Shown: positions 5,919 to 27,209 of the stretch, in pieces
Position numbering within the stretch: the stretch's first letter is position 1
How the letters are laid out: each line of letters starts with the position of its first letter
Notes under the pieces: model-generated
Database searches by the model: none
What the model saw: the letters and a program-made list of their open reading frames with translations, nothing else
What the model was told of the DNA's origin: nothing
Origin: Candidatus Uhrbacteria bacterium
GTDB lineage: Bacteria > Patescibacteriota > Patescibacteriia > UBA9934
DNA length: 34,078 nt
NCBI GenBank assembly: GCA_943357745.1
Contig: CALRGN010000003.1
Span: 1 to 34,078, forward strand
Direction: 5' to 3'
Program-made: the position numbers and the translations under genes

Positions 5919-6473
5919 ATGCAAGTTAGTCAACCATTTTTCGGTCTCTATATTCTAGAACCAACCGTTTATCAAGATGATCGCGGTTATTTTTACGAAT
6001 CTTATAATTTTGATAAGCTTTCGGCCCAAGGTCTAGCGGTCGCCTTTATTCAAGACAATCACACCTTTTCTAAAAAAGGAGTTTTGCGCGGGCTTCACTT
6101 TCAACTCCCCCCCAAAGGGATGGGCAAGCTGGTACGGTGCATTAGCGGAAAAATCTGGGATGTGGCCGTTGATTTACGGGCAGATTCAATTACTTATAAA
6201 CATTGGTTTGGCATTGAGCTTTCGGGAGAAAATAGGCGTCAACTTTATCTCCCTCCGGGATTCGCTCATGGCTTTTACACCATTGAAGACGCGGAAGTCC
6301 TGTACAAATGTACCGCCACTTTTTCTAAAGAATTAGAGGGGGCGGTGATTTGGAATGATCAGGAGTTAAAAATTAATTGGCCAGTGACGGATCAGTCGGT
6401 TCCATTACTCTCTCAAAAAGACCGAGAGGCCCCGCTACTTGCTCAATTAAACTTGCCCGCCAAGTGGGAATAA
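5919..6473 (+). CDS. rfbC: dTDP-4-dehydrorhamnose 3,5-epimerase
   Basis: DDRGYFYESYN, QDNHTFSKKGVLRGLHFQ, YLPPGFAHGFYT. Confidence 0.96.
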   Translation: MQVSQPFFGLYILEPTVYQDDRGYFYESYNFDKLSAQGLAVAFIQDNHTFSKKGVLRGLHFQLPPKGMGKLVRCISGKIWDVAVDLRADSITYKHWFGIELSGENRRQLYLPPGFAHGFYTIEDAEVLYKCTATFSKELEGAVIWNDQELKINWPVTDQSVPLLSQKDREAPLLAQLNLPAKWE

Positions 6474-6490
6474 ATTCATGTGAAAATCCT

Positions 6491-7402
6491 ATGTCATTAG
6501 AAGGACCAATTTTGCTAACCGGTGCAAGGGGGAGTTTAGGAGAGCAGATTCAAAAGATTTGGTCCGCCGCCGGAATTAAAATTATTGCCACTGATCGCGC
6601 TGAGCTAGACATCACCAATTTAGAGCTGGTGGACAAGTTGGTAGGTGAGCTAAAACCGACAGTCATCGTAAATGCCGCCGCCTACAATAATGTTGATGGC
6701 GCCGAGGATCCCGCCCTTTACCAAATCGCGCTCGCGGTTAACGCCACTGGTCCAACCAATCTCGCCCTCACTGCCAAAAAATACGGTGCCAAATTTATTC
6801 ATCTAAGCACCGATTATGTTTTCTCTGGGGTTAGCAACCCCGTCACGGTTGGGGAGATCGCCACGATCGGTTATAAAGAAACAGCCAATCCCCACCCCAT
6901 TAACGCCTACGCCAGAACAAAATTTTTAGGAGAAGAAGCGGTAAGGGAGGTCGGCGGGGAATATTATTTAGTTAGAAGTTCGCGCCTTTTTGGTCCCCTC
7001 GGTTCATCACCCGATGTCAAGGAAAGTTTTGTGCATTTAATGTTGCGAGTAGCCAGAGAGCGACCGTTATTGAAACTGGTGAACGATGAATGGGGTTGTC
7101 CCACTTACACCCCTCACTTAGCAACCGCCCTTTTATCACTCCTCACCAAACCGTACCCCTTCGGAATTTACCACCTTGTTAATGCCGGCGGCGGTCTCAC
7201 TTGGTATGACTTTGCAAAAAAAATCTTTGCGCTCGCCGGAATCACCACCCCGATTGAATCAGTCCCTGGCACGGTCTATTCCCGTCCTGCGCGCCGTCCA
7301 GGCAATGTCACTTTAATACAAACCCGCGGACCAAAACTCCCGTCATTAGATCAAGGACTTTCAGAATTTATCCATCTGTTACCAAATCCCTCCAGTGATT
7401 AA
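6491..7402 (+). CDS. rfbD: dTDP-4-dehydrorhamnose reductase (ORF track start 6377; ATG at 6491 likelier)
   Basis: ILLTGARGSLGEQI, VNAAAYNNVDGAE, LSTDYVFSG, YARTKFLGEE. Confidence 0.95.
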   Translation: MSLEGPILLTGARGSLGEQIQKIWSAAGIKIIATDRAELDITNLELVDKLVGELKPTVIVNAAAYNNVDGAEDPALYQIALAVNATGPTNLALTAKKYGAKFIHLSTDYVFSGVSNPVTVGEIATIGYKETANPHPINAYARTKFLGEEAVREVGGEYYLVRSSRLFGPLGSSPDVKESFVHLMLRVARERPLLKLVNDEWGCPTYTPHLATALLSLLTKPYPFGIYHLVNAGGGLTWYDFAKKIFALAGITTPIESVPGTVYSRPARRPGNVTLIQTRGPKLPSLDQGLSEFIHLLPNPSSD

Positions 7403-10771: not shown

Positions 10772-11887
10772 ATGCCAACTAACCCCAGAAATTTTAATCA
10801 TATTTTAGTTACCGGTGGCGCCGGTTTTATAGGTTCTAATTTTATTAGGTATTTGTTGACCACTTACCCCAATATCTTCGTCACTAATTACGATCTCTTA
10901 ACTTACGCAGGCAATCCGGCCTCTTTGACTGATTTAGCTATCAATCCCCGTTACCGCTTTATTCAAGGAGACATCCGCGACCAGGTCGGGGTTACCACCG
11001 CTCTCAATTCCGAAACCGACCGTCCCACCGCCGTTGACCTTCCCGCCGTTGACCTTCCCGCCGTTGACCTTCCCGCCGTTGACCTTGTAGTCAACTTTGC
11101 CGCCGAGAGCCATGTTGATCGCTCAATCACCGGTCCGGTGACCTTTTTTGAAACCAATGTCTTAGGTACCATCACTTTGCTTGAAGCCTGTCGCCTCGCC
11201 GATATTCCTTTCCACCAAGTTTCCACCGATGAAGTCTACGGTTCGCTTTCTCCCACTGATCCCTCCGCCAATGAAGGCACCCCTTACAATCCGCGCAGTC
11301 CATATAGCGCCAGCAAAGCCGCCGCCGATCATGCCGTTAAGGCTTGGCACCACACTTACGGTTTGCCGGTGACGATTTCCAACTGCTCCAACAACTACGG
11401 CCCATACTGTTTTCCAGAAAAATTTATCCCCCTTGCCATTACTAATTTAATAGATTATCAGCTCGTGCCCCTTTACGGAGCGGGGGAGAATATCCGCGAC
11501 TGGCTCTTTGTCACCGATCACTGCCGAGCCATCGACCTGATTATTCGTACCGGTACTTACGGCGAGACCTATTGTGTGGGCGGCGACAACCAAGAGAGTA
11601 ATCTCCAGATCCTTCATAGACTGCTAGCGATCCTTAATAAACCAGAATCGCTAATCACTTTAGTCACTGATCGTTTAGGCCACGACCTTCGCTACGATCT
11701 CAATTACAGCAAACTAACATCAGAGCTTGGTTGGACTCCAACTTTAGACCTCACCACCGGACTAGCAGCAACAGTCCGCTGGTACCAAGAAAATGAGAGC
11801 TGGTGGCGACCGCTGAAATCTGCCGACCGTTTTAAAACCTATTACGGTCAGCATTATGGTCAAACTGGGGTTAGGTCGGGAATGTAG
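10772..11887 (+). CDS. rfbB: dTDP-glucose 4,6-dehydratase with internal tandem repeat insertion
   Basis: VTGGAGFIGSNFIRYL, AAESHVDRSITGP, YSASKAAADH, NNYGPY. Confidence 0.96.
   Translation: MPTNPRNFNHILVTGGAGFIGSNFIRYLLTTYPNIFVTNYDLLTYAGNPASLTDLAINPRYRFIQGDIRDQVGVTTALNSETDRPTAVDLPAVDLPAVDLPAVDLVVNFAAESHVDRSITGPVTFFETNVLGTITLLEACRLADIPFHQVSTDEVYGSLSPTDPSANEGTPYNPRSPYSASKAAADHAVKAWHHTYGLPVTISNCSNNYGPYCFPEKFIPLAITNLIDYQLVPLYGAGENIRDWLFVTDHCRAIDLIIRTGTYGETYCVGGDNQESNLQILHRLLAILNKPESLITLVTDRLGHDLRYDLNYSKLTSELGWTPTLDLTTGLAATVRWYQENESWWRPLKSADRFKTYYGQHYGQTGVRSGM
11031..11087 (+). repeat. About 4 tandem copies of CCGTTGACCTTCCCG (15 nt; VDLPA repeat) inside rfbB
   Basis: Direct reading: 11031-11045, 11046-11060, 11061-11075, partial 11076-11087. 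Confidence 0.97.
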
Positions 11888-11961: not shown

Positions 11962-13767
11962 ATGAAAAAGATGAAAGGGGTGATTTTAGCGGGGGGGAGT
12001 GGCACCCGGCTTTTTCCCAACACCAAGGTCACCAACAAACACCTCCTGCCGGTCTATAATCAACCGATGATTTACTATCCAATTCAGACCTTATTGAAGG
12101 CCGGCATTGATGAGATTTTGATTCTACCCGGTAAAGATCATGCCGGAGATTTTGCTAAATTATTGGGTTCGGGGCAAGATTTTAACGCCCAATTTTCCTT
12201 CAAGGTTCAAGATCATGCTGGCGGGCTAGCATACGCCGTTGGCCTGGCCGAGAACTTTGTTGGTGATGACAATTTTGTAGTTTTATTTGGGGACAATATT
12301 TTAGAGGATAATATCATTCAAGATGTCCAAGATTTTAAAAGTGGTGCCAAGATTTTTCTTAAGCAAGTATCAGATCCAGAACGATTTGGAATTGCCGAGT
12401 TGGTGGGTGACAAGGTGATCAACATTGTAGAGAAACCAAAAGAACCAAAAAGTAATTGGGCATCAATCGGCGTCTACATCTACGACTCATCGGCCTTTCA
12501 ACACATCAAAACGCTCCAACCATCAGAACGAGGGGAGCTTGAAATTACTGACCTGAACAATCGCTATGTCCGTGCCGGTGAAATGTCGGCTGGCTTTGTG
12601 CGTGGCTTCTGGTTTGATGCTGGTACCCATGAAAGTCTGGTGGACGCCGCCTATGCCTTAAAGAACCATAACAAACCATTAGAACCGCTTAGGTTAGAAA
12701 ATAAAGATCTTCCGGTAGTAGCGATTGGAATTTTACTCTATGACACGCCCGATAAAAAATATACCACCTCCCGTTATCTTCATCACTTTTTAAATTCGCT
12801 AATCGCTCAAGATTATCCCAAGCATACCTTTTATTTTGTTGATAATTCCCCGGAGGAGGATAATGACAATATCAAAATCCTCACCGAGCACGGTCTATTG
12901 GCTAACATTATCCGTCCCGGGCGCAATGTAGGCTTTGGCGCCGGCCACAATTTGATTATTAGGCAAGCGTTAGTTGATAAGGCCGATTTTTATTTTGCCC
13001 TCAATCCAGACATGATTTTAGAGCCAAATGTGATTACAGAATTAGTGAATACCGTGATGAAATCACCGCAAATTGCCTCAGTCACCGGTAAAATTCGTCG
13101 TTGGAATTTTCAAGAGGCGGATCGCTCCGATGCCGGAAAATCTAACTTTATTGACAGTGTTGGAATCTCTCTAACTAAAGGTCATCGCTTTTTAGATATC
13201 GGTCAGGGTGAAATAGATTACGGTCAATATGATCTTAGTCGTGAGATATTCGGCCCTTCCGGTGCCGCCGCTCTGTACCGGATGTCCGCCCTTGATGATG
13301 TTGCGTTTATCACCGAAAACGGTCTTCAAGAGTTTTTTGATGAGCTGATGTTCATGTATAAAGAAGATATTGATCTCGCCTACCGCCTTCAGCTGGCTGG
13401 TTACAAATCTCTTTATACTCCCAATGCTGTTATTTATCACGATCGCACCGTTATCTCCATCGGTCGTGGACTATTTGCCACCATCCAGGGTCGTAAACAC
13501 AAAACCGCCGGCGTTAAAGATTGGTCCTGGTTAAATCACCACATTATTTTACAAAAACTCTTTGCCTTTCGCTGGACTAGCTCAGTTTTTTGGGGAACGA
13601 TTTGGTATGAACTCAAAAGCTTTATTTACATTTTATTTTTTGAACGCCGTTTAATCCTCCAGATTCCCAAGCTCCTCGCTCTTCGTGGCCAAATTAAACG
13701 GAGAAGTGCTCAAACTAAACGCCGCGTTAATCCCGCCAAACAGTTGCAAGATTTAATCATTGATTAG
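11962..13767 (+). CDS. Fusion: glucose-1-phosphate thymidylyltransferase (about aa 1-245) plus GT2 glycosyltransferase (about aa 248-601)
   Basis: N-half MKGVILAGGSGTRLFPNTKVTNKHLLPVYNQPMIYYPI...GFWFDAGTHESL; C-half VAIGILLYDTP...FVDNSPEEDN...GRNVGFGAGHN...FALNPDMILEP...MYKEDIDLAYRLQLAGY. Confidence 0.93.
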   Translation: MKKMKGVILAGGSGTRLFPNTKVTNKHLLPVYNQPMIYYPIQTLLKAGIDEILILPGKDHAGDFAKLLGSGQDFNAQFSFKVQDHAGGLAYAVGLAENFVGDDNFVVLFGDNILEDNIIQDVQDFKSGAKIFLKQVSDPERFGIAELVGDKVINIVEKPKEPKSNWASIGVYIYDSSAFQHIKTLQPSERGELEITDLNNRYVRAGEMSAGFVRGFWFDAGTHESLVDAAYALKNHNKPLEPLRLENKDLPVVAIGILLYDTPDKKYTTSRYLHHFLNSLIAQDYPKHTFYFVDNSPEEDNDNIKILTEHGLLANIIRPGRNVGFGAGHNLIIRQALVDKADFYFALNPDMILEPNVITELVNTVMKSPQIASVTGKIRRWNFQEADRSDAGKSNFIDSVGISLTKGHRFLDIGQGEIDYGQYDLSREIFGPSGAAALYRMSALDDVAFITENGLQEFFDELMFMYKEDIDLAYRLQLAGYKSLYTPNAVIYHDRTVISIGRGLFATIQGRKHKTAGVKDWSWLNHHIILQKLFAFRWTSSVFWGTIWYELKSFIYILFFERRLILQIPKLLALRGQIKRRSAQTKRRVNPAKQLQDLIID

Positions 13768-14632
13768 CGGTATGGACTTATCCATTATCATTGTAAGCTG
13801 GAATGTACGGGAGATTTTACGGGAGAACCTACGCCTTACTCTCTCCGCCACCGCCGGTCTATCATCGGAAGTGATCGTAATTGATAACGCTTCCATTGAT
13901 GGTTCAGCGGCGATGGTGGCGAGCGAATTTCCCACTGTTAAGTTAATCGCCAATGCGGAGAATCTGGGGTTTGCCCAAGCTAATAACCAAGGATTAACCT
14001 TAGCGACCGGTCGCTACTTATTGCTGTTTAATCCTGATATGCAGCCCAACCCATCCACCTTCACCGATCTTATCCAATGGTGCGACCAAAACCCGGGCGC
14101 TGGTGTGGTGGGCGTTCGTTTGGTGGGTGAACACGGTGAATTGGTGAAGCATGTTCGCCGTCTGCCAACGCTTTTTGATCAGCTGGCGATCGTACTTAAA
14201 CTGCCACACCTTTGGCAGGGCCTACTCAATCACTATCTAAGAGTAGATTTCAACTACACCCACGCTTCGGTTGTTGATTCGGTGCGTGGTTCTTTTTTTA
14301 CTATTCGGCGAGAAGTCTATGAACGGCTCGGCGGGCTAGATGCCCGCTACTTTGTTTGGTTTGAAGAGGTGGATTATTGTCGTCAGGTCGGCACCATCGG
14401 TTGGTCGGTAATGTACACCCCCACTGTAACCTGTACTGATCTGGTTGGAAAATCTTTTTCCCAATTACCTCGGGGCCGAAGCCAGCAATTTTTTCAAGAT
14501 TCAATGCTAAAATATTTTGCTAAATGGCATCCCGCTTGGCAAGCAGTCGTTCTCCGTTACGCTTGGTCGCTCGGAAGTAGAATTGCTAGGACGGGGGAGT
14601 GGTTGGGAATTAACACTCGTGCTAAGACCTAA
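13760..14632 (+). CDS. GT2-family glycosyltransferase (rhamnosyltransferase-like)
   Basis: LSIIIVSWNVREIL, VIDNASIDGS, NLGFAQANNQGL, LLFNPDMQP, WFEEVDYCRQ. Confidence 0.92.
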   Translation: MISGMDLSIIIVSWNVREILRENLRLTLSATAGLSSEVIVIDNASIDGSAAMVASEFPTVKLIANAENLGFAQANNQGLTLATGRYLLLFNPDMQPNPSTFTDLIQWCDQNPGAGVVGVRLVGEHGELVKHVRRLPTLFDQLAIVLKLPHLWQGLLNHYLRVDFNYTHASVVDSVRGSFFTIRREVYERLGGLDARYFVWFEEVDYCRQVGTIGWSVMYTPTVTCTDLVGKSFSQLPRGRSQQFFQDSMLKYFAKWHPAWQAVVLRYAWSLGSRIARTGEWLGINTRAKT

Positions 14633-14640
14633 AGCGATCT

Positions 14641-15723
14641 ATGCCTAAAGTAGGAGTCATTCTAGTTAATTATAAAACTTACGCTAATCGATTTCTAGAG
14701 GAGTGTCGTGACACTTTGCGGACACAGGATTTTCCGTCGACTGACCTTAGGGTCTACATTGTGGATAACGCCGCCAGTCCAGAAACTGACGCCTACCTCC
14801 GCGCAACTTACCCGGAAGCGGTCATCATCCCCCGCGCTGACGGCAACTATTCCGCCGCCAACAACGCCGGTATCGCTCGGGCTCGCTCAGACGGCGCTAC
14901 TCATTTGGTGATTGCCAACATGGACACTCATTTCACCACCAGTTGGTTGAGAGAACTAGTTCACGCCCTAGATTCCGACCCTGCTCTCGGCATTGTTCAA
15001 TCCAAAGTTTTGCTCTATCCGCAAACTCCAGCTGAATGGTCGGCACCAAAAATCAATACTCTCGGGAACATCATGCACTATCTTGGTTTCGGGTTTACTT
15101 CTCATTATCAAGAACTAGAGCGTCCGGATAGCTCGTTCACCCACCACCTCATTCCCATTGACGGCTACGCCAGCGGTTGTTCTCTCATCATTCGTGACAA
15201 CACATTAGATAGAATCGGCGGTTATGATGAGGAGTATTATATGTATCATGATGATGTGGAACTTTCTTGGCGAGCAAAGCTAGCCGGATACAAACTGGCC
15301 CTCGCTCCCAAATCAGTGCTCTATCATAAGTACGAATTCGGTCGGAGTATAATGATGCTTTATTATATGGAGCGGAACCGTTATTTGGTGATGTTGACTT
15401 ATTACAAGCCCCAAACTTTGTTATTACTTTCCCCGGCCATTATTGGGATGGAGCTTGGGATGTGGTACGCCGCCATTACCGGTGGTTGGGTTAATACTAA
15501 ATGGCGCGTCACTAAATATTTCCTCACGCCATTAGTTTGGAAACAAATCCTTGCCAAGCGCGGTGAGGTAACCAAGCTCCGCACCGTTTCGGAGCATGCT
15601 GTGCTAAAAACATTTGTGGGTGAAGTGCTTTTTCAAGAGATCATGAGTCCATTACTAAAGTATCTGGTCAACCCCTGTTTTAATTTCTACTGGCGACTGG
15701 TTTTACCCCTAATCCGTTGGTAG
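14641..15723 (+). CDS. GT2-family glycosyltransferase
   Basis: VGVILVNYKTYANRF, YIVDNAAS, ANNAGIARA, IDGYASGCSLIIR, YHDDVELSWRAKLAGYKL. Confidence 0.9.
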   Translation: MPKVGVILVNYKTYANRFLEECRDTLRTQDFPSTDLRVYIVDNAASPETDAYLRATYPEAVIIPRADGNYSAANNAGIARARSDGATHLVIANMDTHFTTSWLRELVHALDSDPALGIVQSKVLLYPQTPAEWSAPKINTLGNIMHYLGFGFTSHYQELERPDSSFTHHLIPIDGYASGCSLIIRDNTLDRIGGYDEEYYMYHDDVELSWRAKLAGYKLALAPKSVLYHKYEFGRSIMMLYYMERNRYLVMLTYYKPQTLLLLSPAIIGMELGMWYAAITGGWVNTKWRVTKYFLTPLVWKQILAKRGEVTKLRTVSEHAVLKTFVGEVLFQEIMSPLLKYLVNPCFNFYWRLVLPLIRW

Positions 15724-16592
15724 TAATTATGCCAAAGCTCAACATCACGATTGTAAATTACAAAATGGTGAAAGACATTCGTCTACTTTTGCCATCTCTA
15801 TTAGCAGACCTTGGCAGTTCCGTGGAGGCGGTAATTCAGATCATTGATAATTCTAATAATTGCGATGGCATCAAAGAGGTGCTGGCCCAAGAATTTCCAA
15901 CCGTGCGCTATTTGGATGCGCTTGGCAATATCGGGTTTGGCAAGGCGCAAAATTTGGGGATGGCCACCGTTCCAGCCGACTTTTACCTTGTGCTCAATCC
16001 GGATATTATTTTCCCCGCTGGTCAACCGGCTGGTCAACCGGCTGGTCAACCGGCTGGTCAAACAGTAATCAAGACCCTCCTAGATTATCTAGAAGCAAAT
16101 CCCACGGTGGGAATTGTCGCCCCCAGACTCACTAACACCGATGGTTCATTGCAACCATCCTGTCTCCGTTTTAATGGGCTTTTAGATCAGATCGCTCGTA
16201 GATTAGAATGGGGTAAATACAGCCGATATATTCAAAACCGGGTTAATCGGTTTTTAATGACCGATTATGATCATCAAAGCACCCAGCCGGTTGACTGGTT
16301 AACCGGCGCCTTTCTCTTGGTGCGCGGTGAGACCATGCGCGCCCTTGGTGGATTTGACCAACGATTTTTTATGTACTTAGAAGACTGTGATCTTTGCCGA
16401 CGCTCTTGGTTGCTAGGTCAGGCAGTTCATTATTTCCCCGCACTTTTTATTACTCACGGCCATCGGCGCGGTTCTTTCGGACAATCAGCTTGGCGATTAG
16501 TACTTTACAACAAAGTTACGAGAATTCATCTCAAAAGTTGGTTGAAATATTTTGCTAAATGGGGCTTGCGTGCTCCGCATTACGGTCGCTAA
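15717..16592 (+). CDS. GT2-family glycosyltransferase with GQPA repeat next to the NPD motif
   Basis: LNITIVNYKMVKDIR, IIDNSNNCDG, NIGFGKAQNLGM, LVLNPDIIF, WLTGAFLLVRGETM, MYLEDCDLCRR; a start at 15729 (MPKLNITIV) is likelier. Confidence 0.92.
   Translation: MVVIMPKLNITIVNYKMVKDIRLLLPSLLADLGSSVEAVIQIIDNSNNCDGIKEVLAQEFPTVRYLDALGNIGFGKAQNLGMATVPADFYLVLNPDIIFPAGQPAGQPAGQPAGQTVIKTLLDYLEANPTVGIVAPRLTNTDGSLQPSCLRFNGLLDQIARRLEWGKYSRYIQNRVNRFLMTDYDHQSTQPVDWLTGAFLLVRGETMRALGGFDQRFFMYLEDCDLCRRSWLLGQAVHYFPALFITHGHRRGSFGQSAWRLVLYNKVTRIHLKSWLKYFAKWGLRAPHYGR
16017..16061 (+). repeat. About 3.75 tandem copies of GCTGGTCAACCG (GQPA repeat)
   Basis: Direct reading: 16017-16028, 16029-16040, 16041-16052 identical, then gctggtcaa. 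Confidence 0.97.
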
Positions 16593-19040: not shown

Positions 19041-19460
19041 ATGCTAAAAAAATCATCATTCTCCCTCACTCGGACCCTGGCAAAATTGCCGGCAAGTCTA
19101 AATGCAAAAACGACTACTAGCAAAAGTAGTAAATTGTGGTGGCTGGGACTAGCCTTCTATCTTGGCGCCGGTTTAATGCTTTTTCTAGTAATCATTCCTA
19201 GAATTTACGGCCTTCAAGCAATCCCGATTCATTACAATGTTCATATTGGCGTTGATCAGATTGCCGCCTGGTGGATGCCGGTGGTGTGGTGGCTGATCTG
19301 GGGATTATTATTACTGATCAATTTCTTGCTCTACCGCCGCTTCCACCGCGAGCAGGATGCCTTTTTACAGACAGCGATTCTTAGCTTCACAATTATCGGC
19401 TCAATTCTTGCTCTCACGGCCGGATTTTTCCAAGCGGTGATTATTTTCACCTATGTTTGA
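19041..19460 (+). CDS. Small integral membrane protein, unknown function
   Basis: Several hydrophobic segments; 8-nt overlap with the mraY start; TATAAT at 19021-19026. Confidence 0.65.
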   Translation: MLKKSSFSLTRTLAKLPASLNAKTTTSKSSKLWWLGLAFYLGAGLMLFLVIIPRIYGLQAIPIHYNVHIGVDQIAAWWMPVVWWLIWGLLLLINFLLYRRFHREQDAFLQTAILSFTIIGSILALTAGFFQAVIIFTYV

Positions 19461-20508
19461 TTTTTTTGTGGTCACCAAAATTCTTCTTCTCTCCACCCTC
19501 GCTTTTATATTAGCCTTGATTTGGACTCCGGCTTTAACCCACTTGTTGTATAAATATAAATTAGGGAAATCTATCCGGAGTGCTGTGCAGGCGCCAATGT
19601 TTGCTGAGCTCCACAAAAAGAAGGCCGGAGTACCCACGCTGGGTGGAGTATTGATGTGGGGGACCGCTTTGTTTATTGCTCTGCTGTTTTGGGCGATCAG
19701 TGTAGTTGCCCCTAACTCACCACTGGCAGAATTAAACTTCCTCTCTCGTTCTCAAACCTGGCTTCCGCTTGCGGCCTTAGTTTTAGCTGGTATCTTGGGA
19801 GCGATTGATGATTTTTGCAACATTTATAAAATCGGCCCTCATGGCGGGGGAATCGGCAGTAAACAACGCCTACTTGTTCACACTATGGTGGCCGCGCTTG
19901 GTGCTTGGTGGTTTTATGCCAAACTTGGTTGGGACTTTTTGCATGTTCCTCTCCTTGGCGACATTAATCTTGGTATTTGGTACATCCCCTTCTTCATCTT
20001 AGTAATCGTTGGCACTTCATTTGCTGTTAATCAAACTGATGGCCTAGATGGTTTAGCTGGCGGTACCTTGGCCTCCTCTTTTGCAGCGATGGCGGTGATT
20101 GCATTAATCCAAGGTAGAGGTGATTTAGCGGTATTTTGCGGAGTGATAGTGGGGGTTCTACTGGCTTTCCTTTGGTTTAATATTTACCCGGCTCGTTTTA
20201 TTATGGGAGATACCGGTGCCATGAGTTTAGGTGTTACTTTGGGGGTGGTGGCAATGCTCACTAATTCCGCTTTGTTATTACCAATCATCGGTGGGGTATT
20301 TGTGCTAGAGGCAGTTACTACTTTTATTCAACTTACTTCCAAGCGGTTAAGAGGAAAAAAAATCTTCCTAATCGCACCCATTCACCATCACTTTGAAGCA
20401 CTCGGCTGGCCCGAACCAAAAGTAGTAATGCGATTTTGGGTGTTGAGTTGGATTGGTGCCGGATTGGGTCTTATCATCGCCTTGCTAGACGCCGCCACTT
20501 TCTCTTAG
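19453..20508 (+). CDS. mraY: Phospho-N-acetylmuramoyl-pentapeptide-transferase
   Basis: KKKAGVPTLGGVLM, GAIDDFCNIYK, NQTDGLDGLAGG, PARFIMGDTGAMSLG, APIHHHFEALGW. Confidence 0.96.
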   Translation: MFDFFVVTKILLLSTLAFILALIWTPALTHLLYKYKLGKSIRSAVQAPMFAELHKKKAGVPTLGGVLMWGTALFIALLFWAISVVAPNSPLAELNFLSRSQTWLPLAALVLAGILGAIDDFCNIYKIGPHGGGIGSKQRLLVHTMVAALGAWWFYAKLGWDFLHVPLLGDINLGIWYIPFFILVIVGTSFAVNQTDGLDGLAGGTLASSFAAMAVIALIQGRGDLAVFCGVIVGVLLAFLWFNIYPARFIMGDTGAMSLGVTLGVVAMLTNSALLLPIIGGVFVLEAVTTFIQLTSKRLRGKKIFLIAPIHHHFEALGWPEPKVVMRFWVLSWIGAGLGLIIALLDAATFS

Positions 20509-20509
20509 T

Positions 20510-21691
20510 ATGTCCCTTCTTCGGCCCACCCGCTGGGCGATATTTTCCGGAGGCGACACCAATTATCTGATTTTGACCGCCCTCATTTTATTTTGTGGAC
20601 TTTTTTTCCTTGGGTCGGCCGCATGGCCATTGGGATACGACCGTTTTGGAAACGGTTATTATTTTTTAATTCATCAATTAATTTTTGGCCTGCTACCTGG
20701 TGTGATGGCTTTTATTACCGCCACTCAAATTCCCACCGGTTTTTATTCAAGGTGGGCGGGACTGGCCTATTTAATCACCATCGCCTTACTCTTTGCTGTT
20801 TTTATTCCTGGATTAGGCGCGGACTTTGGCTCCTCAAAGAGTTGGATCTCACTGGGATCATTATCTTTTCAACCGTCAGAGCTGGTGAAACTAACTTTCC
20901 TCATCTATTTGGGCGCTTGGCTTTCTAGCAGAACCTTAAATGAGCGCGCAAGTTGGCGGTTTGGTTTTTGGCCGTTTGCAATTGCGATTGGCACCGTGAT
21001 GTTGGCTTTGTTTCTTCAGCCCGATACCGGCACGATGGTGATCTTGGGATTGATCGGGATCACCGTCTATTTCTTAGCCGGTGGCCCGATAAAATATTTT
21101 TTTATGACCATCTTGCTAGGTATCTTCGCCATTTGGATTTTGCTTACCGTGGTTCCAAAATATTCTGATAGTATTCCATTGCTCACAAAATTAGAATATC
21201 GCACCGAGCGTTTCACCACCTTCCTTCATCCAGAACTTGATCCGTTGGGTCAGGGGTATCATATCAATCAAGCACTGTTAGCGGTTGGTACCGGTGGTTG
21301 GTTTGGCCGGGGGTTTGGTCACTCCTTACAAAAATTTTCCTATTTACCAGAGGTGGCCGGAGATTCAATCTTCGCCGTCATTGCAGAGGAATTAGGTTTC
21401 ATTATCACCTCACTTTTTCTTATTGTGTATGCCTTTTGGGTGCGGCGCGCTTTTCAAATTGCCTCACTTGCTAAAACTGATTTTTCGCGCTATGTGGGTT
21501 GCGGGATTGCAGTTGGGATTGGCCTCCAATCACTGATAAACATTGGGGCCATGTTAGGGCTTCTGCCCATCACCGGCGTCCCTTGGCCGTTAATCAGTTA
21601 TGGTGGCACGGCGCTAATGGTATCATTATTCAGTGTTGGGTTAATTTGGCGAATTTCTTTAGAAAATAATCCGCGCGCCCCAATTTTATGA
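20510..21691 (+). CDS. SEDS-family protein (FtsW/RodA)
   Basis: GSSKSWISLGSLSFQPSELVKL, LQPDTGTMVIL, FLPEVAGDSIFAVIAEELGF-like motif, GVPWPLISYGGTALM. Confidence 0.94.
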   Translation: MSLLRPTRWAIFSGGDTNYLILTALILFCGLFFLGSAAWPLGYDRFGNGYYFLIHQLIFGLLPGVMAFITATQIPTGFYSRWAGLAYLITIALLFAVFIPGLGADFGSSKSWISLGSLSFQPSELVKLTFLIYLGAWLSSRTLNERASWRFGFWPFAIAIGTVMLALFLQPDTGTMVILGLIGITVYFLAGGPIKYFFMTILLGIFAIWILLTVVPKYSDSIPLLTKLEYRTERFTTFLHPELDPLGQGYHINQALLAVGTGGWFGRGFGHSLQKFSYLPEVAGDSIFAVIAEELGFIITSLFLIVYAFWVRRAFQIASLAKTDFSRYVGCGIAVGIGLQSLINIGAMLGLLPITGVPWPLISYGGTALMVSLFSVGLIWRISLENNPRAPIL

Positions 21692-22779
21692 GTCAATCTT
21701 CTAGCGCTATGGTTCCAAATAAAACCGTTCTATTTTGCGGTGGCGGTACTTTAGGGCCGGTTACTCCGTTACTCGCGGTCGCTAAAACTTTGCAAACCAT
21801 TAGTCCCGATCGGGAACAGAATTGGATCACCACTCCCGCCGGCCCAGAAAACCAACTCCTAAGAGAATATAGCTTTAATCCAATTTCATTTTCCGCTCCC
21901 AAACTTCAGCGCAATAAATTGTATCTTCTGCCGTTCGTAATAATTCAACTACTAATTGCCCTTGTAAACGCTAGAAAATTAGTCAAACAAATTAACCCAG
22001 GCCTGGTGGTGATTGCCGGAGGCTATGTGGGTGTGCCGTTAGCACTGATCGCCTGGTGGTTCAAAATCCCGATCATTGTTCATCAGTTAGATTTACAAAT
22101 CGGATTAGCCAATCAGCTGATTATTCCTTTAGCCTCAAGTGTTACCACAAGTTGGCCCCAAACCGCGGATAAATTAAAAAAAAATCAAGCAAAATATCTC
22201 GGTACGATTGTTAGATCAGATCTCAATGCCGGTAGAGCAGAATTGGCCCAAGAAAGATTTGGATTGCGACCAAATTTTCCTACTGTTCTCATACTCGGTG
22301 GCGGTACCGGCGCCCTATCAATTAATGAAAAAATTCTCTCCATTGCCTCCCAACTACTACCACATTGTAATCTCCTCCATGTAGTTGGGCGCGGAAAACT
22401 AGTTACTGGCCTTACCACTTTGGGCGCCGGCTATCATGCTGTTGAATATCTGGGCGCCGGTCTTGCTGACGCTTACGCGGTGGCCGATCTAGTGGTCTCT
22501 CGGGCCGGCATGGGAACAATTATGGAACTAAGCGTGTTAGCCAAACCCACTATCTTGGTACCATTAGCCGGCCCGCAGACAATAAACGCCACCGCATGTT
22601 CTATTGGTGAAGCGGTGCAATTACCACCGCTCGATACCGCCCAATCATTAGCCCAGACTATCTTGCATCTCCTTCAGGATGAGCATCAGAGATTTAAACT
22701 AAAAACCAATTTACATGAGTTGTTCATTCATGGCGGAGAAGTAGCCTTAGCTAAGATTATTGTGGACCAGTTGCGCTAA
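21688..22779 (+). CDS. murG: UDP-GlcNAc:undecaprenyl-PP-MurNAc-pentapeptide GlcNAc transferase
   Basis: CGGGTLGPVTPLLAVA, GGYVGVPLALIAWWFKIPIIVHQLD, LGGGTGALSINE, VVSRAGMGTIMELSVLAKPTILVPL. Confidence 0.93.
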   Translation: MSQSSSAMVPNKTVLFCGGGTLGPVTPLLAVAKTLQTISPDREQNWITTPAGPENQLLREYSFNPISFSAPKLQRNKLYLLPFVIIQLLIALVNARKLVKQINPGLVVIAGGYVGVPLALIAWWFKIPIIVHQLDLQIGLANQLIIPLASSVTTSWPQTADKLKKNQAKYLGTIVRSDLNAGRAELAQERFGLRPNFPTVLILGGGTGALSINEKILSIASQLLPHCNLLHVVGRGKLVTGLTTLGAGYHAVEYLGAGLADAYAVADLVVSRAGMGTIMELSVLAKPTILVPLAGPQTINATACSIGEAVQLPPLDTAQSLAQTILHLLQDEHQRFKLKTNLHELFIHGGEVALAKIIVDQLR

Positions 22780-22883
22780 ATAAACACCCCCCATACCCAA
22801 TAAAATCGCCAAATTTCTTTAGTGCTGATTCCTTCCGAATGTAACTCTAATGCCCGAATTTTAAATTCATAGGTATAGTTCAT
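22776..22883 (-). pseudogene. Short HTH fragment (MNYTYEFKIRALELHSEGISTKEIWRF...), probable decayed transposase N-terminus
   Basis: Resembles the N-terminal helix-turn-helix of IS3/IS150-type transposases; stops after 35 aa and overlaps the murG stop. Confidence 0.35.
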
Positions 22884-23003
22884 GCACCGTTCCGAACAGT
22901 TAAAAACAGAGGGATTTTTTAATAGATTAGCTCGCTCCGTCTCAGAAAAGATCGTTCGCATATCATTAAGGTTAAGTCATTGCTTAAATTAAACCATAAA
23001 ACA

Positions 23004-23031
23004 AAAGCAGACACCGTTGAGTGTCTACTTT
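23004..23031 (-). terminator. Intrinsic terminator of tRNA-Lys
   Basis: AGACAC (23009-23014)/GTGTCT (23021-23026) stem flanked by AAAG/CTTT; minus strand continues gcttttgtttta. Confidence 0.65.
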
Positions 23032-23050
23032 ATTGGGTACAGATCATTGG

Positions 23051-23122
23051 TGCGCCGGGTGGGAATCGAACCCACGACCACAGGCTTAAAAGGCCTTTGC
23101 TCTACCCCTGAGCTACCAGCGC
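23051..23122 (-). tRNA. tRNA-Lys(TTT)
   Basis: Minus strand gcgctgg...ccggcgc acceptor, GCTC/GAGC D-stem, loop CTTTTAA, GTGGG-TTCGATT-CCCAC T-arm. Confidence 0.95.
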
Positions 23123-23131
23123 ATGACCGGT

Positions 23132-23159
23132 ATTCTAGCAGAATCCTACCAATCTGCAA
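23132..23159 (-). promoter_or_regulatory. tRNA-Lys promoter
   Basis: Minus strand TTGCAG, 16-nt spacer, TAGAAT preceded by TGC. Confidence 0.55.
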
Positions 23160-23281
23160 ATATCAATCGTGAGACCAAAGCAGAAGGCAATCAAGGGTAA
23201 TGGTTAGGGTATAAATTACTGCGTGGTTGGATTATCGGTCAACCATTCAAAATCTAACTCATATGGTATTATATCTTAGCT

Positions 23282-24766
23282 ATGGATCTATCCTTAAAGG
23301 ACAATTTTCAGGACGCCGTAGTTACCGTGATCGGCCTAGGAAAATATGAGCATTCAGGCGGATTTGATACGGTAAAATGGCTTCTTTCTCACGGCGCCCA
23401 AGTGGTAATTACTGATCTAAAGGATAATCAGGCCATGCGGGAAAGTGTGGATGGGTTGATGCACTGGTTTGATCAATATCAAGCCGCTCACAGCTCTAAA
23501 ACTCTTTATCCGCCCGTCTTTGCTTTGGGTGAACATCGTCCCGACGATTTCACAGAGGTGGACTGCGTCATTCAGAGTCCTGGGGTGCCAAGCGAGCGGT
23601 CGTATCAAAAACTGGCGCTTGAAAACGGCATTGCGTTAGAATCAGATGTCTCATTATTTTTCCGATACTATCCACAACCAATTATCGCTGTTACCGGCAC
23701 TCGCGGGAAAACCACCGTCTCTTTGGCGCTCCAACAAATGCTTACCGGAATCCATCCCACCCCGCTCCTCGTGGGTAACATAAAAACTCCGCCGCTCTCC
23801 GTTCTAGATGACTTGATTGCTAGAAACTCCGCGCAACCGGTGGTTATAGAACTTTCCTCATGGTTATTAGAAAGTCTGCCCCGCGCTTTTTTGGATCTGG
23901 GGAAAGGTCCGGAGATCAGCATCCTTACTAACATCTATCCCGATCATTTAAAGCTCTATCCAGATATAGAATCATACACGCGCTCCAAAGAAATTATAAT
24001 CGGGTTTCAACAACCGGATCAATGGGCGGTAATGAATTATGATCAACCGGCGGTTAGAGCTTTAGAATCTCGTGCCACCGGAAAAATCTGTTGGTTTTCT
24101 AAAACTGCAGAATTAGAGATTGCAAGTTCCACCGCAAGTACAGCCGCAAATTCGGCTAGTTGTTTTGTTAGAGCGGGGGAGATAATTTTTAAACGAGATG
24201 GGGGGGAGTGGAACTTAGGAACAGTAGACAGCATTGCCCTAAAGGGGGTGAGTAATCTAGAAAACTTACTGGCCGCCACCGCCGCAGCAATGCTCCGCGG
24301 GGCTCCGGTAGAATCTATCACTCGCACCCTAAAAGAGTTTGTTGGTCTACCCGATCATCAGGAGGTAATTAGGGAGGTAAGGGAAATCTCGTTTGTGAAT
24401 GATACCGCCGCCACCTCACTTGTTGCCACTATCTCCGCCGTAGATAAATTTGCTTCATTAGAGCATCTGATTTTAATTTTCCAAGGCACATCAGATTTAG
24501 CTAGTCAGGTTAAAAAACTAAATTGGTCACAACAATTAAAGCTAGTCATTATTTTAACTAGTTCCGCCACGCCTGAAGTAATGTCCGCCTTAAACGGTGT
24601 GGTGAGAGTAGCCCAAGTGCCAGATTTGGCGGCGGCGGTAGCTTTAGCGGCATTGCAGGCTAGATCCGGAGACACGGTGCTGTATTCTCCCGGAGCACCA
24701 GCAAAAGAAGGTGAAACCACTTTTTACCGTGGGGAAGTGTATAGAGAGGAGGTCAGAAAATTATGA
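23282..24766 (+). CDS. murD: UDP-N-acetylmuramoylalanine-D-glutamate ligase
   Basis: VIGLGKYEHSGG, VTGTRGKTTVSLAL, IELSSWLLE, FVNDTAATS, YSPGAPAKEGETTFYRGEVYREEV. Confidence 0.88.
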   Translation: MDLSLKDNFQDAVVTVIGLGKYEHSGGFDTVKWLLSHGAQVVITDLKDNQAMRESVDGLMHWFDQYQAAHSSKTLYPPVFALGEHRPDDFTEVDCVIQSPGVPSERSYQKLALENGIALESDVSLFFRYYPQPIIAVTGTRGKTTVSLALQQMLTGIHPTPLLVGNIKTPPLSVLDDLIARNSAQPVVIELSSWLLESLPRAFLDLGKGPEISILTNIYPDHLKLYPDIESYTRSKEIIIGFQQPDQWAVMNYDQPAVRALESRATGKICWFSKTAELEIASSTASTAANSASCFVRAGEIIFKRDGGEWNLGTVDSIALKGVSNLENLLAATAAAMLRGAPVESITRTLKEFVGLPDHQEVIREVREISFVNDTAATSLVATISAVDKFASLEHLILIFQGTSDLASQVKKLNWSQQLKLVIILTSSATPEVMSALNGVVRVAQVPDLAAAVALAALQARSGDTVLYSPGAPAKEGETTFYRGEVYREEVRKL

Positions 24767-26067
24767 CCACCCTCGCCAAAATGAAATGTTTGATTCCTTT
24801 TGGTTTTATGGCCAAATACCATTATTGTTTAGCTTGGTTGGCGGCTCTCTGGTATCACTTTCCAGCCAATCAAATGATTGTAATTGGCGTTACCGGAACT
24901 AGTGGCAAGTCATCCACGGTTCAATATATCTATGATCTTCTCCGCGCTTTGAATCAATCGGTTGGCTATACCTCTACTATTGGCTTTGCCATTAATGGGG
25001 AATATGAGGAAAATAAAAGTAAGATGACCATGCTGGGGCGTTTTTTCCTCTCCGGCATGCTTAGGAAAATGGTGAGCTCAGGATGTCAATATGCCGTGAT
25101 TGAAACCAGCTCTCAGGGTATTAGTCAACATAGACATCAAGGTATCAATTATGATCTAGTGGTCTTTACCAATCTCTCCCCAGAACATATTGAAGCCCAC
25201 GGTGGTTACATAAATTATCGCGCCGCCAAGGGTAAACTTTTTTCCCATCTCGCCCACAGCCCGATCAAAATTTTTAACGGTAAAACCCTACAAAAAATAG
25301 TCGTACTAAATGGTGATGACCGAGAAGTAGAATTTTTTTCTAGCTTTCCCGTAAAAAAAATTGTAAAGTTCGGATGGGGGAGTGGACAACTGGATATTCA
25401 AGCACAGTCTGTGGGCGCAAATATCACCGTCAACCACCACCCTGTGCACTGGCAATTGCCCGCCGAATTTTCAAGAAAAAATGCCTTGGCAGCCGTGGCC
25501 ACTGTTACCGCTTTGGGATTCCCGTTACAAGAAGTTTTGGTTGCCAGTGAAAAACTGGGGTCGGTGCCAGGAAGATTTCAGTTTATTTGTGCCGGTCAAC
25601 CATTTATAGTTATTATTGATTATGCTTTTGAGCCGGGTGCTCTCACCGCTTTGTTTAAGGCGGTTCATAGCTTACATCCGGTCGCAATTATTGGTGTTCA
25701 TGGTTCCGCCGGTGGGGGTAGAGATTTGGCGCGTCGGAAAATGATTGGAGAAATTGCCGGCAAGGAGGAGCGCTTGGTGGTGGTTACCAATGAAGATCCG
25801 TATGATGATAATCCAGAGGACATTATAAAAGATGTCGCCGCTGGGGCACAGGCGGTGGGAAAGCGAGTGGGAGTGGATTTAAAGTTGATACTAGATCGCG
25901 CCACGGCAATCAAGGTGGCCATCCATGCCGCCCTTCCCGGGGAAGCGGTGATTATTACGGGGAAGGGATCAGAACCGGTAATGGCGGTGGCCAATGGTCA
26001 GAAAATTCCTTGGTCTGACGCCCAAGCGGCTCTAAACGCGCTAGCCGATTTAGGTTACACTGTTTAG
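24763..26067 (+). CDS. MurE-like Mur ligase lacking a recognisable N-terminal substrate domain
   Basis: VIGVTGTSGKSSTVQYIY, ETSSQGISQHRHQGI, FTNLSPEHIEAHGGYINYRAAKGKLF, GSAGGGRDLARRKMIGEIA, TNEDPYDDNPEDII. Confidence 0.88.
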   Translation: MTTLAKMKCLIPFGFMAKYHYCLAWLAALWYHFPANQMIVIGVTGTSGKSSTVQYIYDLLRALNQSVGYTSTIGFAINGEYEENKSKMTMLGRFFLSGMLRKMVSSGCQYAVIETSSQGISQHRHQGINYDLVVFTNLSPEHIEAHGGYINYRAAKGKLFSHLAHSPIKIFNGKTLQKIVVLNGDDREVEFFSSFPVKKIVKFGWGSGQLDIQAQSVGANITVNHHPVHWQLPAEFSRKNALAAVATVTALGFPLQEVLVASEKLGSVPGRFQFICAGQPFIVIIDYAFEPGALTALFKAVHSLHPVAIIGVHGSAGGGRDLARRKMIGEIAGKEERLVVVTNEDPYDDNPEDIIKDVAAGAQAVGKRVGVDLKLILDRATAIKVAIHAALPGEAVIITGKGSEPVMAVANGQKIPWSDAQAALNALADLGYTV

Positions 26068-26103
26068 GTTAACAAACCATCAAACCCAAGCAATGAAATC
26101 CTT

Positions 26104-26466
26104 ATGTCATATCGCTTGCTAGCAATTGTGATTCTCCTCATCCTCCTACTCTTTCTAGGAATCGGAGTTTTTAGAGAATATGGTCAAGGACGGGCGGTGG
26201 CATCAGAGATTGAGCGGCTACAGGCAGAAGAACTTAGATTGGTGGGGGAGAAGGCGGAGGCGCTATCACTGATTGCCAAACTCTCTTCTGAGTATTACCT
26301 AGAAAGTCAGGCCAGAACAAAAGAGAATCTTGGACTTCCGGGGGAGCAGGCAATTTTAGTGGTTGACGCTCAAAATTCCGCTGTCATCCCGATTGCGGAA
26401 AATTATCAGCCCAAGCGGCGCCATCATTTAGCGGACTGGTGGGAATATTTCTTTGGCGCCCGCTAG
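26104..26466 (+). CDS. FtsB/DivIC-like septum-formation initiator
   Basis: N-terminal TM helix plus coiled coil (EIERLQAEELRLVGEKAEAL) and ARTKENLGLPGEQAILV tail. Confidence 0.75.
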   Translation: MSYRLLAIVILLILLLFLGIGVFREYGQGRAVASEIERLQAEELRLVGEKAEALSLIAKLSSEYYLESQARTKENLGLPGEQAILVVDAQNSAVIPIAENYQPKRRHHLADWWEYFFGAR

Positions 26467-26468
26467 TT

Positions 26469-27209
26469 ATGGTTTTAAAAATATTTTTAAAGCGCACCGT
26501 CTTAGTTGTGGGGCTGTACCTTCTGTGGGTACAGTTATTTTTTATTTTTCAACCCACCGGAAAACTAGGACAATTATTTGGTTTCACCATTGCGCCTCCC
26601 GTGGCGGTGGTAGATAATACTTTGATTTGGTATCCCCAGGTGGTTGCGAGGGCCAGTTGGCTTGATGATTCCAAACACAAATTTAAATCTGCCTTAGGAT
26701 CGGTGATAGAAACAACCGTAATGAAAAATCTCGCCAAGGGATACGGTTGGCAAGGTACGGAACTTAGAGATTTTAGTCGATCATTAGCTAGTAATCAAGC
26801 CGCCGTTCAGAAATTAAATCTAGCGATCAGGTTTGATCACACCCAACAATCATCGGCTTGGGGGGAGATAATTGACCTACAAAATCGCCTTAACCAAGGG
26901 CTAATGCTTGGTGATCTGGCGGTTACTTTTTCTGAACACCCCACCGCCAGCGGTCGTGGTTATTTAGGAATCATTTCTGCGGATGCCATGCCACCGTGGC
27001 TACTCCCCGCTATTAATCTCCCGCTTTACACCTCCTCGGAGATCCTCTCTTCCGAAGAAGCGTTTTGGATTGTGGAACTTAATGCCTTTTATGCCTCCGA
27101 CTCAAACCCCGCCTATGAATTTAGCGGTTTAGCAATTTATAAAAAAGGATTGAGCAAGATTGTGAGCAAGCAGTTAGAATTACGCCCACCCTTTGTGTTG
27201 GTGTGGTAA
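26469..27209 (+). CDS. Membrane-anchored protein with degenerate parvulin-type (PpiC/SurA) PPIase domain
   Basis: N-terminal TM; GLMLGDLAVTFSEHPTASGRGYLGIISADAMPPWLLPAINLPLYTSSEILSSEEAFWIVELN parallels the parvulin pattern; start at 26469 preferred over 26439. Confidence 0.5.
   Translation: MVLKIFLKRTVLVVGLYLLWVQLFFIFQPTGKLGQLFGFTIAPPVAVVDNTLIWYPQVVARASWLDDSKHKFKSALGSVIETTVMKNLAKGYGWQGTELRDFSRSLASNQAAVQKLNLAIRFDHTQQSSAWGEIIDLQNRLNQGLMLGDLAVTFSEHPTASGRGYLGIISADAMPPWLLPAINLPLYTSSEILSSEEAFWIVELNAFYASDSNPAYEFSGLAIYKKGLSKIVSKQLELRPPFVLVW

What the first reader, a model, noticed from the sequence alone, without database searches (positions are those of the whole stretch)
11962..13767. RfbA-GT2 fusion: sugar-nucleotide synthesis joined to a glycosyltransferase
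A single 601-aa frame contains a complete short-type glucose-1-phosphate thymidylyltransferase (to about aa 245) followed by a complete rhamnosyltransferase-like GT2 domain. It sits in the same locus as rfbC, rfbD, rfbB and three more GT2 genes. The fusion suggests coupling or channelling between the first dTDP-rhamnose step and glycan assembly.
Basis: partly seen in the sequence, partly recalled or inferred. Interest (0 to 1): 0.6.

Follow-up and report, generated by a model that had tools for sequence, protein, structure and literature searches.

The report
RmlA–glycosyltransferase fusion, conserved in Patescibacteria
In this tiny-genome bacterium the enzyme that starts dTDP-rhamnose synthesis is really fused to a sugar-transferring enzyme; the same fused gene occurs in at least 13 other genomes, so it is a genuine but modestly novel two-enzyme protein and not a sequencing error.

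Summary
Window 11962-13767 is one 601-aa frame: a short-type glucose-1-phosphate thymidylyltransferase (RmlA, residues 4-234) joined by a short flexible linker to a family-2 glycosyltransferase domain ("GT2a", about 250-590). It is not an indel artefact: twelve same-class genomes (this one included) and two of another class carry the same architecture in one frame, with homology running through the junction. In other genomes rmlA and GT2a are separate neighbours in the same order, often in one frame with a 0-18-base gap, suggesting the fusion arose by read-through of such a pair. Here the fusion is the only RmlA, and rmlB, rmlC and rmlD lie on the same contig. Relatives in the genus and order carry rmlA_long instead, while the contig's MraY is native, so the rmlA-GT2a/GT2b block was probably acquired horizontally. 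The 'channelling' reading is weak: RmlA makes dTDP-glucose, and three more enzymes stand between it and dTDP-rhamnose. Fixed 1:1 supply and recruitment of RmlA to the glycan-assembly site is likelier; GT2a's donor is unknown. Related lineages also fuse RmlB-RmlD-RmlA, RmlD-RmlA, RmlA-RmlB and RmlC-RmlB. I found no report of RmlA-GT2 in the papers searched.

The parts
11962..13767 (+). RmlA-GT2a fusion protein, 601 aa
   Evidence: homologues
11971..12663 (+). short-type RmlA domain, residues 4-234; residues matching the RmlA catalytic set R16, K26, Q83, D111, K158, W217, D219 kept in all 13 fused proteins compared
   Evidence: (closest solved: B. anthracis RfbA 4ecm/3hl3)
12664..12711 (+). linker, residues 235-250; low-confidence and variable, same length in the 10 same-class fused homologues aligned
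12712..13764 (+). GT2a domain (about 251-590) with C-terminal basic/hydrophobic helices; motifs VDNS, NPDM, YKED, HDR
5919..6473 (+). rmlC, dTDP-4-dehydrorhamnose 3,5-epimerase
   Evidence: 217 bits, cut-off 155.75
6377..7402 (+). rmlD, dTDP-4-dehydrorhamnose reductase (true start probably near 6500)
   Evidence: 219.3 bits, cut-off 224.05
10772..11887 (+). rmlB, dTDP-glucose 4,6-dehydratase
   Evidence: 435 bits, cut-off 365
13773..14632 (+). GT2b, starts 5 bases after the stop of the fusion
   Evidence: ATG at 13773 read from the sequence
14641..15723 (+). GT2c
15717..16592 (+). GT2d, divergent; weak GT2 matches only

Best explanation
A genuine two-enzyme protein. The N-terminal domain is the cell's only RmlA and makes dTDP-glucose, which RmlB, RmlC and RmlD (same contig) turn into dTDP-L-rhamnose. 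The C-terminal domain is a GT-A glycosyltransferase of the GT2a-d set that builds a surface glycan. The two were once neighbouring genes of an rml-GT2 operon and became one frame through loss of the stop between them; this lineage then acquired the fused gene, with GT2b, by horizontal transfer. Most likely use of the joining: fixed 1:1 expression and anchoring of RmlA at the membrane-side assembly site through the GT domain's basic, hydrophobic C-terminal helices, so that the dTDP-sugar is made near its users. Shown: the frame, both domains with key residues kept, conservation, separate-neighbour forms, sole RmlA. Inferred: both activities, dTDP-L-rhamnose as final donor, membrane contact, the benefit of joining.
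For: One open frame and two domains over cut-off. Same in-frame fusion in 11 other same-class genomes (L041-L045, L060-L067, L076) and two of another class (L101, L102). Homology runs through the junction, e.g. KNHNKPLEPLRLENK against KNFNKPLEPLKLENK in L060. Fused RmlA domains of the class form one group, support 100/100. Separate neighbours rmlA|GT2a in 11 loci, 10 in the same frame, 8 with a 0-18-base gap, within rmlB-rmlD-rmlA-GT2a-GT2b. Only RmlA in the genome: the other two NTP_transferase genes are GlmU-like and not RmlA. RmlB in 11 and RmlD in 11 of 12 fused genomes. Key residues kept in all 13 fused proteins compared, one D-to-E at the GT metal site in L067. MraY on this contig is closest to the same genus, 74%, but the fusion and GT2b are closest to distant families and absent from the family at these thresholds.
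Against: No activity is shown for any member. GT2a's donor and acceptor are unknown. A linker of low model confidence and pTM 0.61 give no sign of a fixed contact between domains. The RmlC step differs between carriers: canonical RmlC in 3 of 12, otherwise a small RmlC-like cupin, an FdtA-like protein or nothing found, so the final sugar may not be rhamnose everywhere. In the fused group the GT2a tree does not hold all fusions together (p-AU 0.043 with the other class included), so one or several origins, or later splitting, stay open. The fused clade is not nested in the neighbour clade of the RmlA tree, so the read-through route is inferred.
Confidence: 0.72

Rival explanations
1. Neutral fusion. 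Loss of the stop between tightly packed same-frame genes in a small genome, kept because both domains fold independently; no benefit from the joining itself.
For: Neighbours often need only a stop change to fuse (TAA directly followed by ATG in L047, L048, L068). The same class shows many other rml fusions in different orders: RmlB-RmlD-RmlA, RmlD-RmlA, RmlA-RmlB, RmlC-RmlB. Linker variable and floppy.
Against: The architecture is kept in 12 same-class genomes across at least five families with no stop regained, and is retained even where the gene stands away from the other rml genes (L067/L089; rmlB-rmlD are on the same contig about 125 kb away).
Confidence: 0.3
2. True channelling: GT2a uses dTDP-glucose, the direct product of RmlA, as its donor.
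For: It is the only reading in which the two joined steps are consecutive. The RmlA-GT2a pair is constant while the RmlC step varies among carriers.
Against: RmlB and RmlD go with the fusion in nearly all carriers, rmlD often directly upstream, which fits a dTDP-deoxysugar product. No sequence evidence for dTDP-glucose use.
Confidence: 0.12
3. Assembly or sequencing artefact (indel or missed stop) or a mis-binned contig.
For: Single MAG-like assembly; same-family relatives lack the gene.
Against: Independent genomes with the same junction; contig's MraY matches the genus.
Confidence: 0.01

Closest known systems
Short-type RmlA/RfbA (Bacillus anthracis RfbA, PDB 3hl3 and 4ecm)
   Same: Closest solved relative of the RmlA domain (53-54% identity); same length, lacks the C-terminal region where S. 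enterica RmlA has the allosteric residue E256 (PMC10375476).
   Different: Stands alone; here a GT2 domain follows.
RmlC/RmlD fusion of Prymnesium parvum (PMC6556577)
   Same: Natural fusion of dTDP-rhamnose pathway enzymes; that one was expressed and shown active.
   Different: Joins two successive synthesis steps; no glycosyltransferase.
IPCT-DIPPS (NCBIfam NF041135), nucleotidyltransferase fused to the transferase that uses its product
   Same: Sugar-phosphate nucleotidyltransferase plus transferase in one chain.
   Different: Second domain is a CDP-alcohol phosphotransferase using the direct product; here a GT2 and three steps between. Comparison from family description and general knowledge.
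GT2 family glycosyltransferases (Pfam PF00535/PF13641)
   Same: Fold elements and DxD-like, ED motifs.
   Different: No functional subfamily model is reached.

Membership tests
RmlA (glucose-1-phosphate thymidylyltransferase) | NTP_transferase fold over Pfam cut-off | tested here: met
   188 bits against 21.2; structure match to 4ecm
RmlA (glucose-1-phosphate thymidylyltransferase) | Catalytic and metal residues (R16, K26, D111, D219, by analogy with known RmlA) | tested here: met
   Invariant in 13 fused proteins; residue roles from general knowledge
RmlA (glucose-1-phosphate thymidylyltransferase) | NCBIfam equivalog cut-off of TIGR01207 | tested here: not met
   238 bits against 360.65; match stops at model position 236 of 286. 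A stand-alone short RmlA also fails, 312 bits, so the failure reflects the short form at least in part
RmlA (glucose-1-phosphate thymidylyltransferase) | Makes dTDP-glucose | not testable with these tools
   Supported by being the only RmlA beside rmlB, rmlC, rmlD
GT2 glycosyltransferase | Pfam GT2 models over cut-off | tested here: met
GT2 glycosyltransferase | DxD-like metal site and ED catalytic pair | tested here: met
   NPDM, D350; YKED, E468/D469; one D-to-E in L067
Rhamnosyltransferase (TIGR01556) | Subfamily cut-off 200.55 bits | tested here: not met
   Not among the matches of the GT2a domain at E 0.001

The most novel reading that the evidence does not exclude
A conserved bifunctional enzyme that ties nucleotide-sugar supply to a membrane-side glycosyltransferase, one of several rml fusions that together amount to a physically linked dTDP-sugar assembly unit in minimal-genome Patescibacteria.
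Probability: 0.25. Interest if true: 0.6.

Novelty: new variant of a known kind. Interest (0 to 1): 0.4.

Why it matters
Sugar-nucleotide synthesis and glycan assembly are normally done by separate proteins. A conserved natural link gives a ready test of whether supply and use of dTDP-sugars are spatially coupled, and the repeated fusions in one class show how small genomes join pathway neighbours. It also gives annotators a clear case: one gene, two functions.

Tried and rejected
Sequencing indel: rejected. Mis-binned contig: rejected by MraY. A separate GT2a product from an internal start: no in-frame start near the junction. A second RmlA in this genome: other NTP_transferase genes are GlmU-like or not RmlA. 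Fusion in Subdoligranulum or Hirschia plasmids: separate genes. One origin for all fusions including the other class: not rejected on RmlA (p 0.39), marginally on GT2a (p 0.043), left open. Model of the GT2 domain alone without an alignment: failed, pLDDT 38; the fold search of the whole model listed only RmlA in the rows shown. Literature searches for RmlA-GT2 fusions: nothing relevant.

Full report
Check of the observation. The window is the whole of contig C3 of a 650-kb assembly, 94% complete. The frame 11962-13767 is open for 601 codons. Pfam places NTP_transferase at 5-234 and GT2 models at 269-551. An AlphaFold model built on 22 related sequences has mean pLDDT 84.6, two well-formed domains and a poorly defined linker at 238-248. 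Its RmlA part matches B. anthracis RfbA 4ecm best, 54% identity.

Is it real? A search of 381 genomes of the class found the same frame in five other genomes at 54-65% identity, in families coded f32, f33 (two), f82 and f96 (L041-L045, read). A pattern search of GTDB genomes with the GT2a domain gave further carriers: L060-L067 and L076, from records titled Falkowbacteria, Magasanikbacteria, Uhrbacteria and unnamed Patescibacteria. A phylum-wide sample of 380 added two genomes of another class, L101 and L102, with a longer linker. The alignment runs without break through the junction. An indel is excluded.

How it arose. In eleven loci rmlA and GT2a are separate neighbours in the order rmlB-rmlD-rmlA-GT2a-GT2b. 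In ten they share a frame and in eight the gap is 0-18 bases; three read TAA ATG. Six of these loci were chosen by a search that favours same-frame pairs, but four of the five found by the GT2a search are also in frame. The fused RmlA domains of the class are one group with support 100/100. They do not sit inside the neighbour group, and the GT2a tree is less clear, so read-through of a neighbour pair is the simplest account but not proved, and the number of origins is open. Mean pairwise identity among fused proteins is 78% for RmlA and 58% for GT2a.

Transfer. Same-genus and same-order relatives carry rmlA_long, over its NCBIfam cut-off (L031, L006), and a different GT2 of the same broad type beside a GT2d-like gene. 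None carries the fusion. Yet MraY on this contig is closest to the genus (74%). GT2b is likewise closest to a distant carrier, G283, and below threshold in the family. The rmlA-GT2a-GT2b block was therefore probably acquired, and rmlA_long lost, on a native contig.

How it works. The fusion is the only RmlA found in this genome, and rmlB and rmlC pass their family cut-offs while rmlD is just under. So the RmlA domain most likely feeds dTDP-L-rhamnose synthesis. The GT2a domain keeps the residues expected of an active enzyme and ends in helices with 15 K/R against 5 D/E that could touch the membrane (inference). Because RmlA's product needs three more steps, direct channelling is unlikely unless GT2a uses dTDP-glucose. 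The better-supported use is constant 1:1 supply and placement. Among carriers, RmlB and RmlD are nearly always present, but canonical RmlC in only 3 of 12; others have a small RmlC-like cupin or an FdtA-like protein. The final sugar may therefore differ between carriers.

Known or new? The domains are ordinary. Fusions of rhamnose-pathway enzymes are known, e.g. RmlC/D in algae (PMC6556577). No paper on an RmlA-GT2 fusion turned up in five searches of open-access full text, which does not exclude one elsewhere; architecture databases could not be queried. In the same class I also saw RmlB-RmlD-RmlA (933 aa), RmlD-RmlA, RmlA-RmlB and RmlC-RmlB fusions. I judge it a new variant of a known kind, of moderate interest.

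Noticed in passing
L082:796-3597: 933-aa RmlB-RmlD-RmlA triple fusion in another genome of the class (G353): three rhamnose-pathway enzymes in one chain.
   Followed up: partly
L079:1567-3258, L080:3123-4733, L083:541-2295, L085:932-2557: RmlD-RmlA fusions in family f25.
   Followed up: partly
L084:2149-4095 and L066:2473-4170: RmlA-RmlB (648 aa) and RmlC-RmlB (565 aa) fusions; L066 also carries the RmlA-GT2a fusion.
   Followed up: partly
L093:2264-2716, L094:1673-2125, L095:1199-1681, L096:1666-2118, L087:698-1111: Many carriers lack canonical RmlC and have a conserved ~150-aa RmlC-like cupin or an FdtA-like protein, so the dTDP-sugar made may differ.
   Followed up: partly
window 19453-27209: Peptidoglycan and division genes (mraY, ftsW, murG, two Mur ligases, a DivIC-like gene) follow directly after the glycan locus and pyrG.
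   Followed up: no
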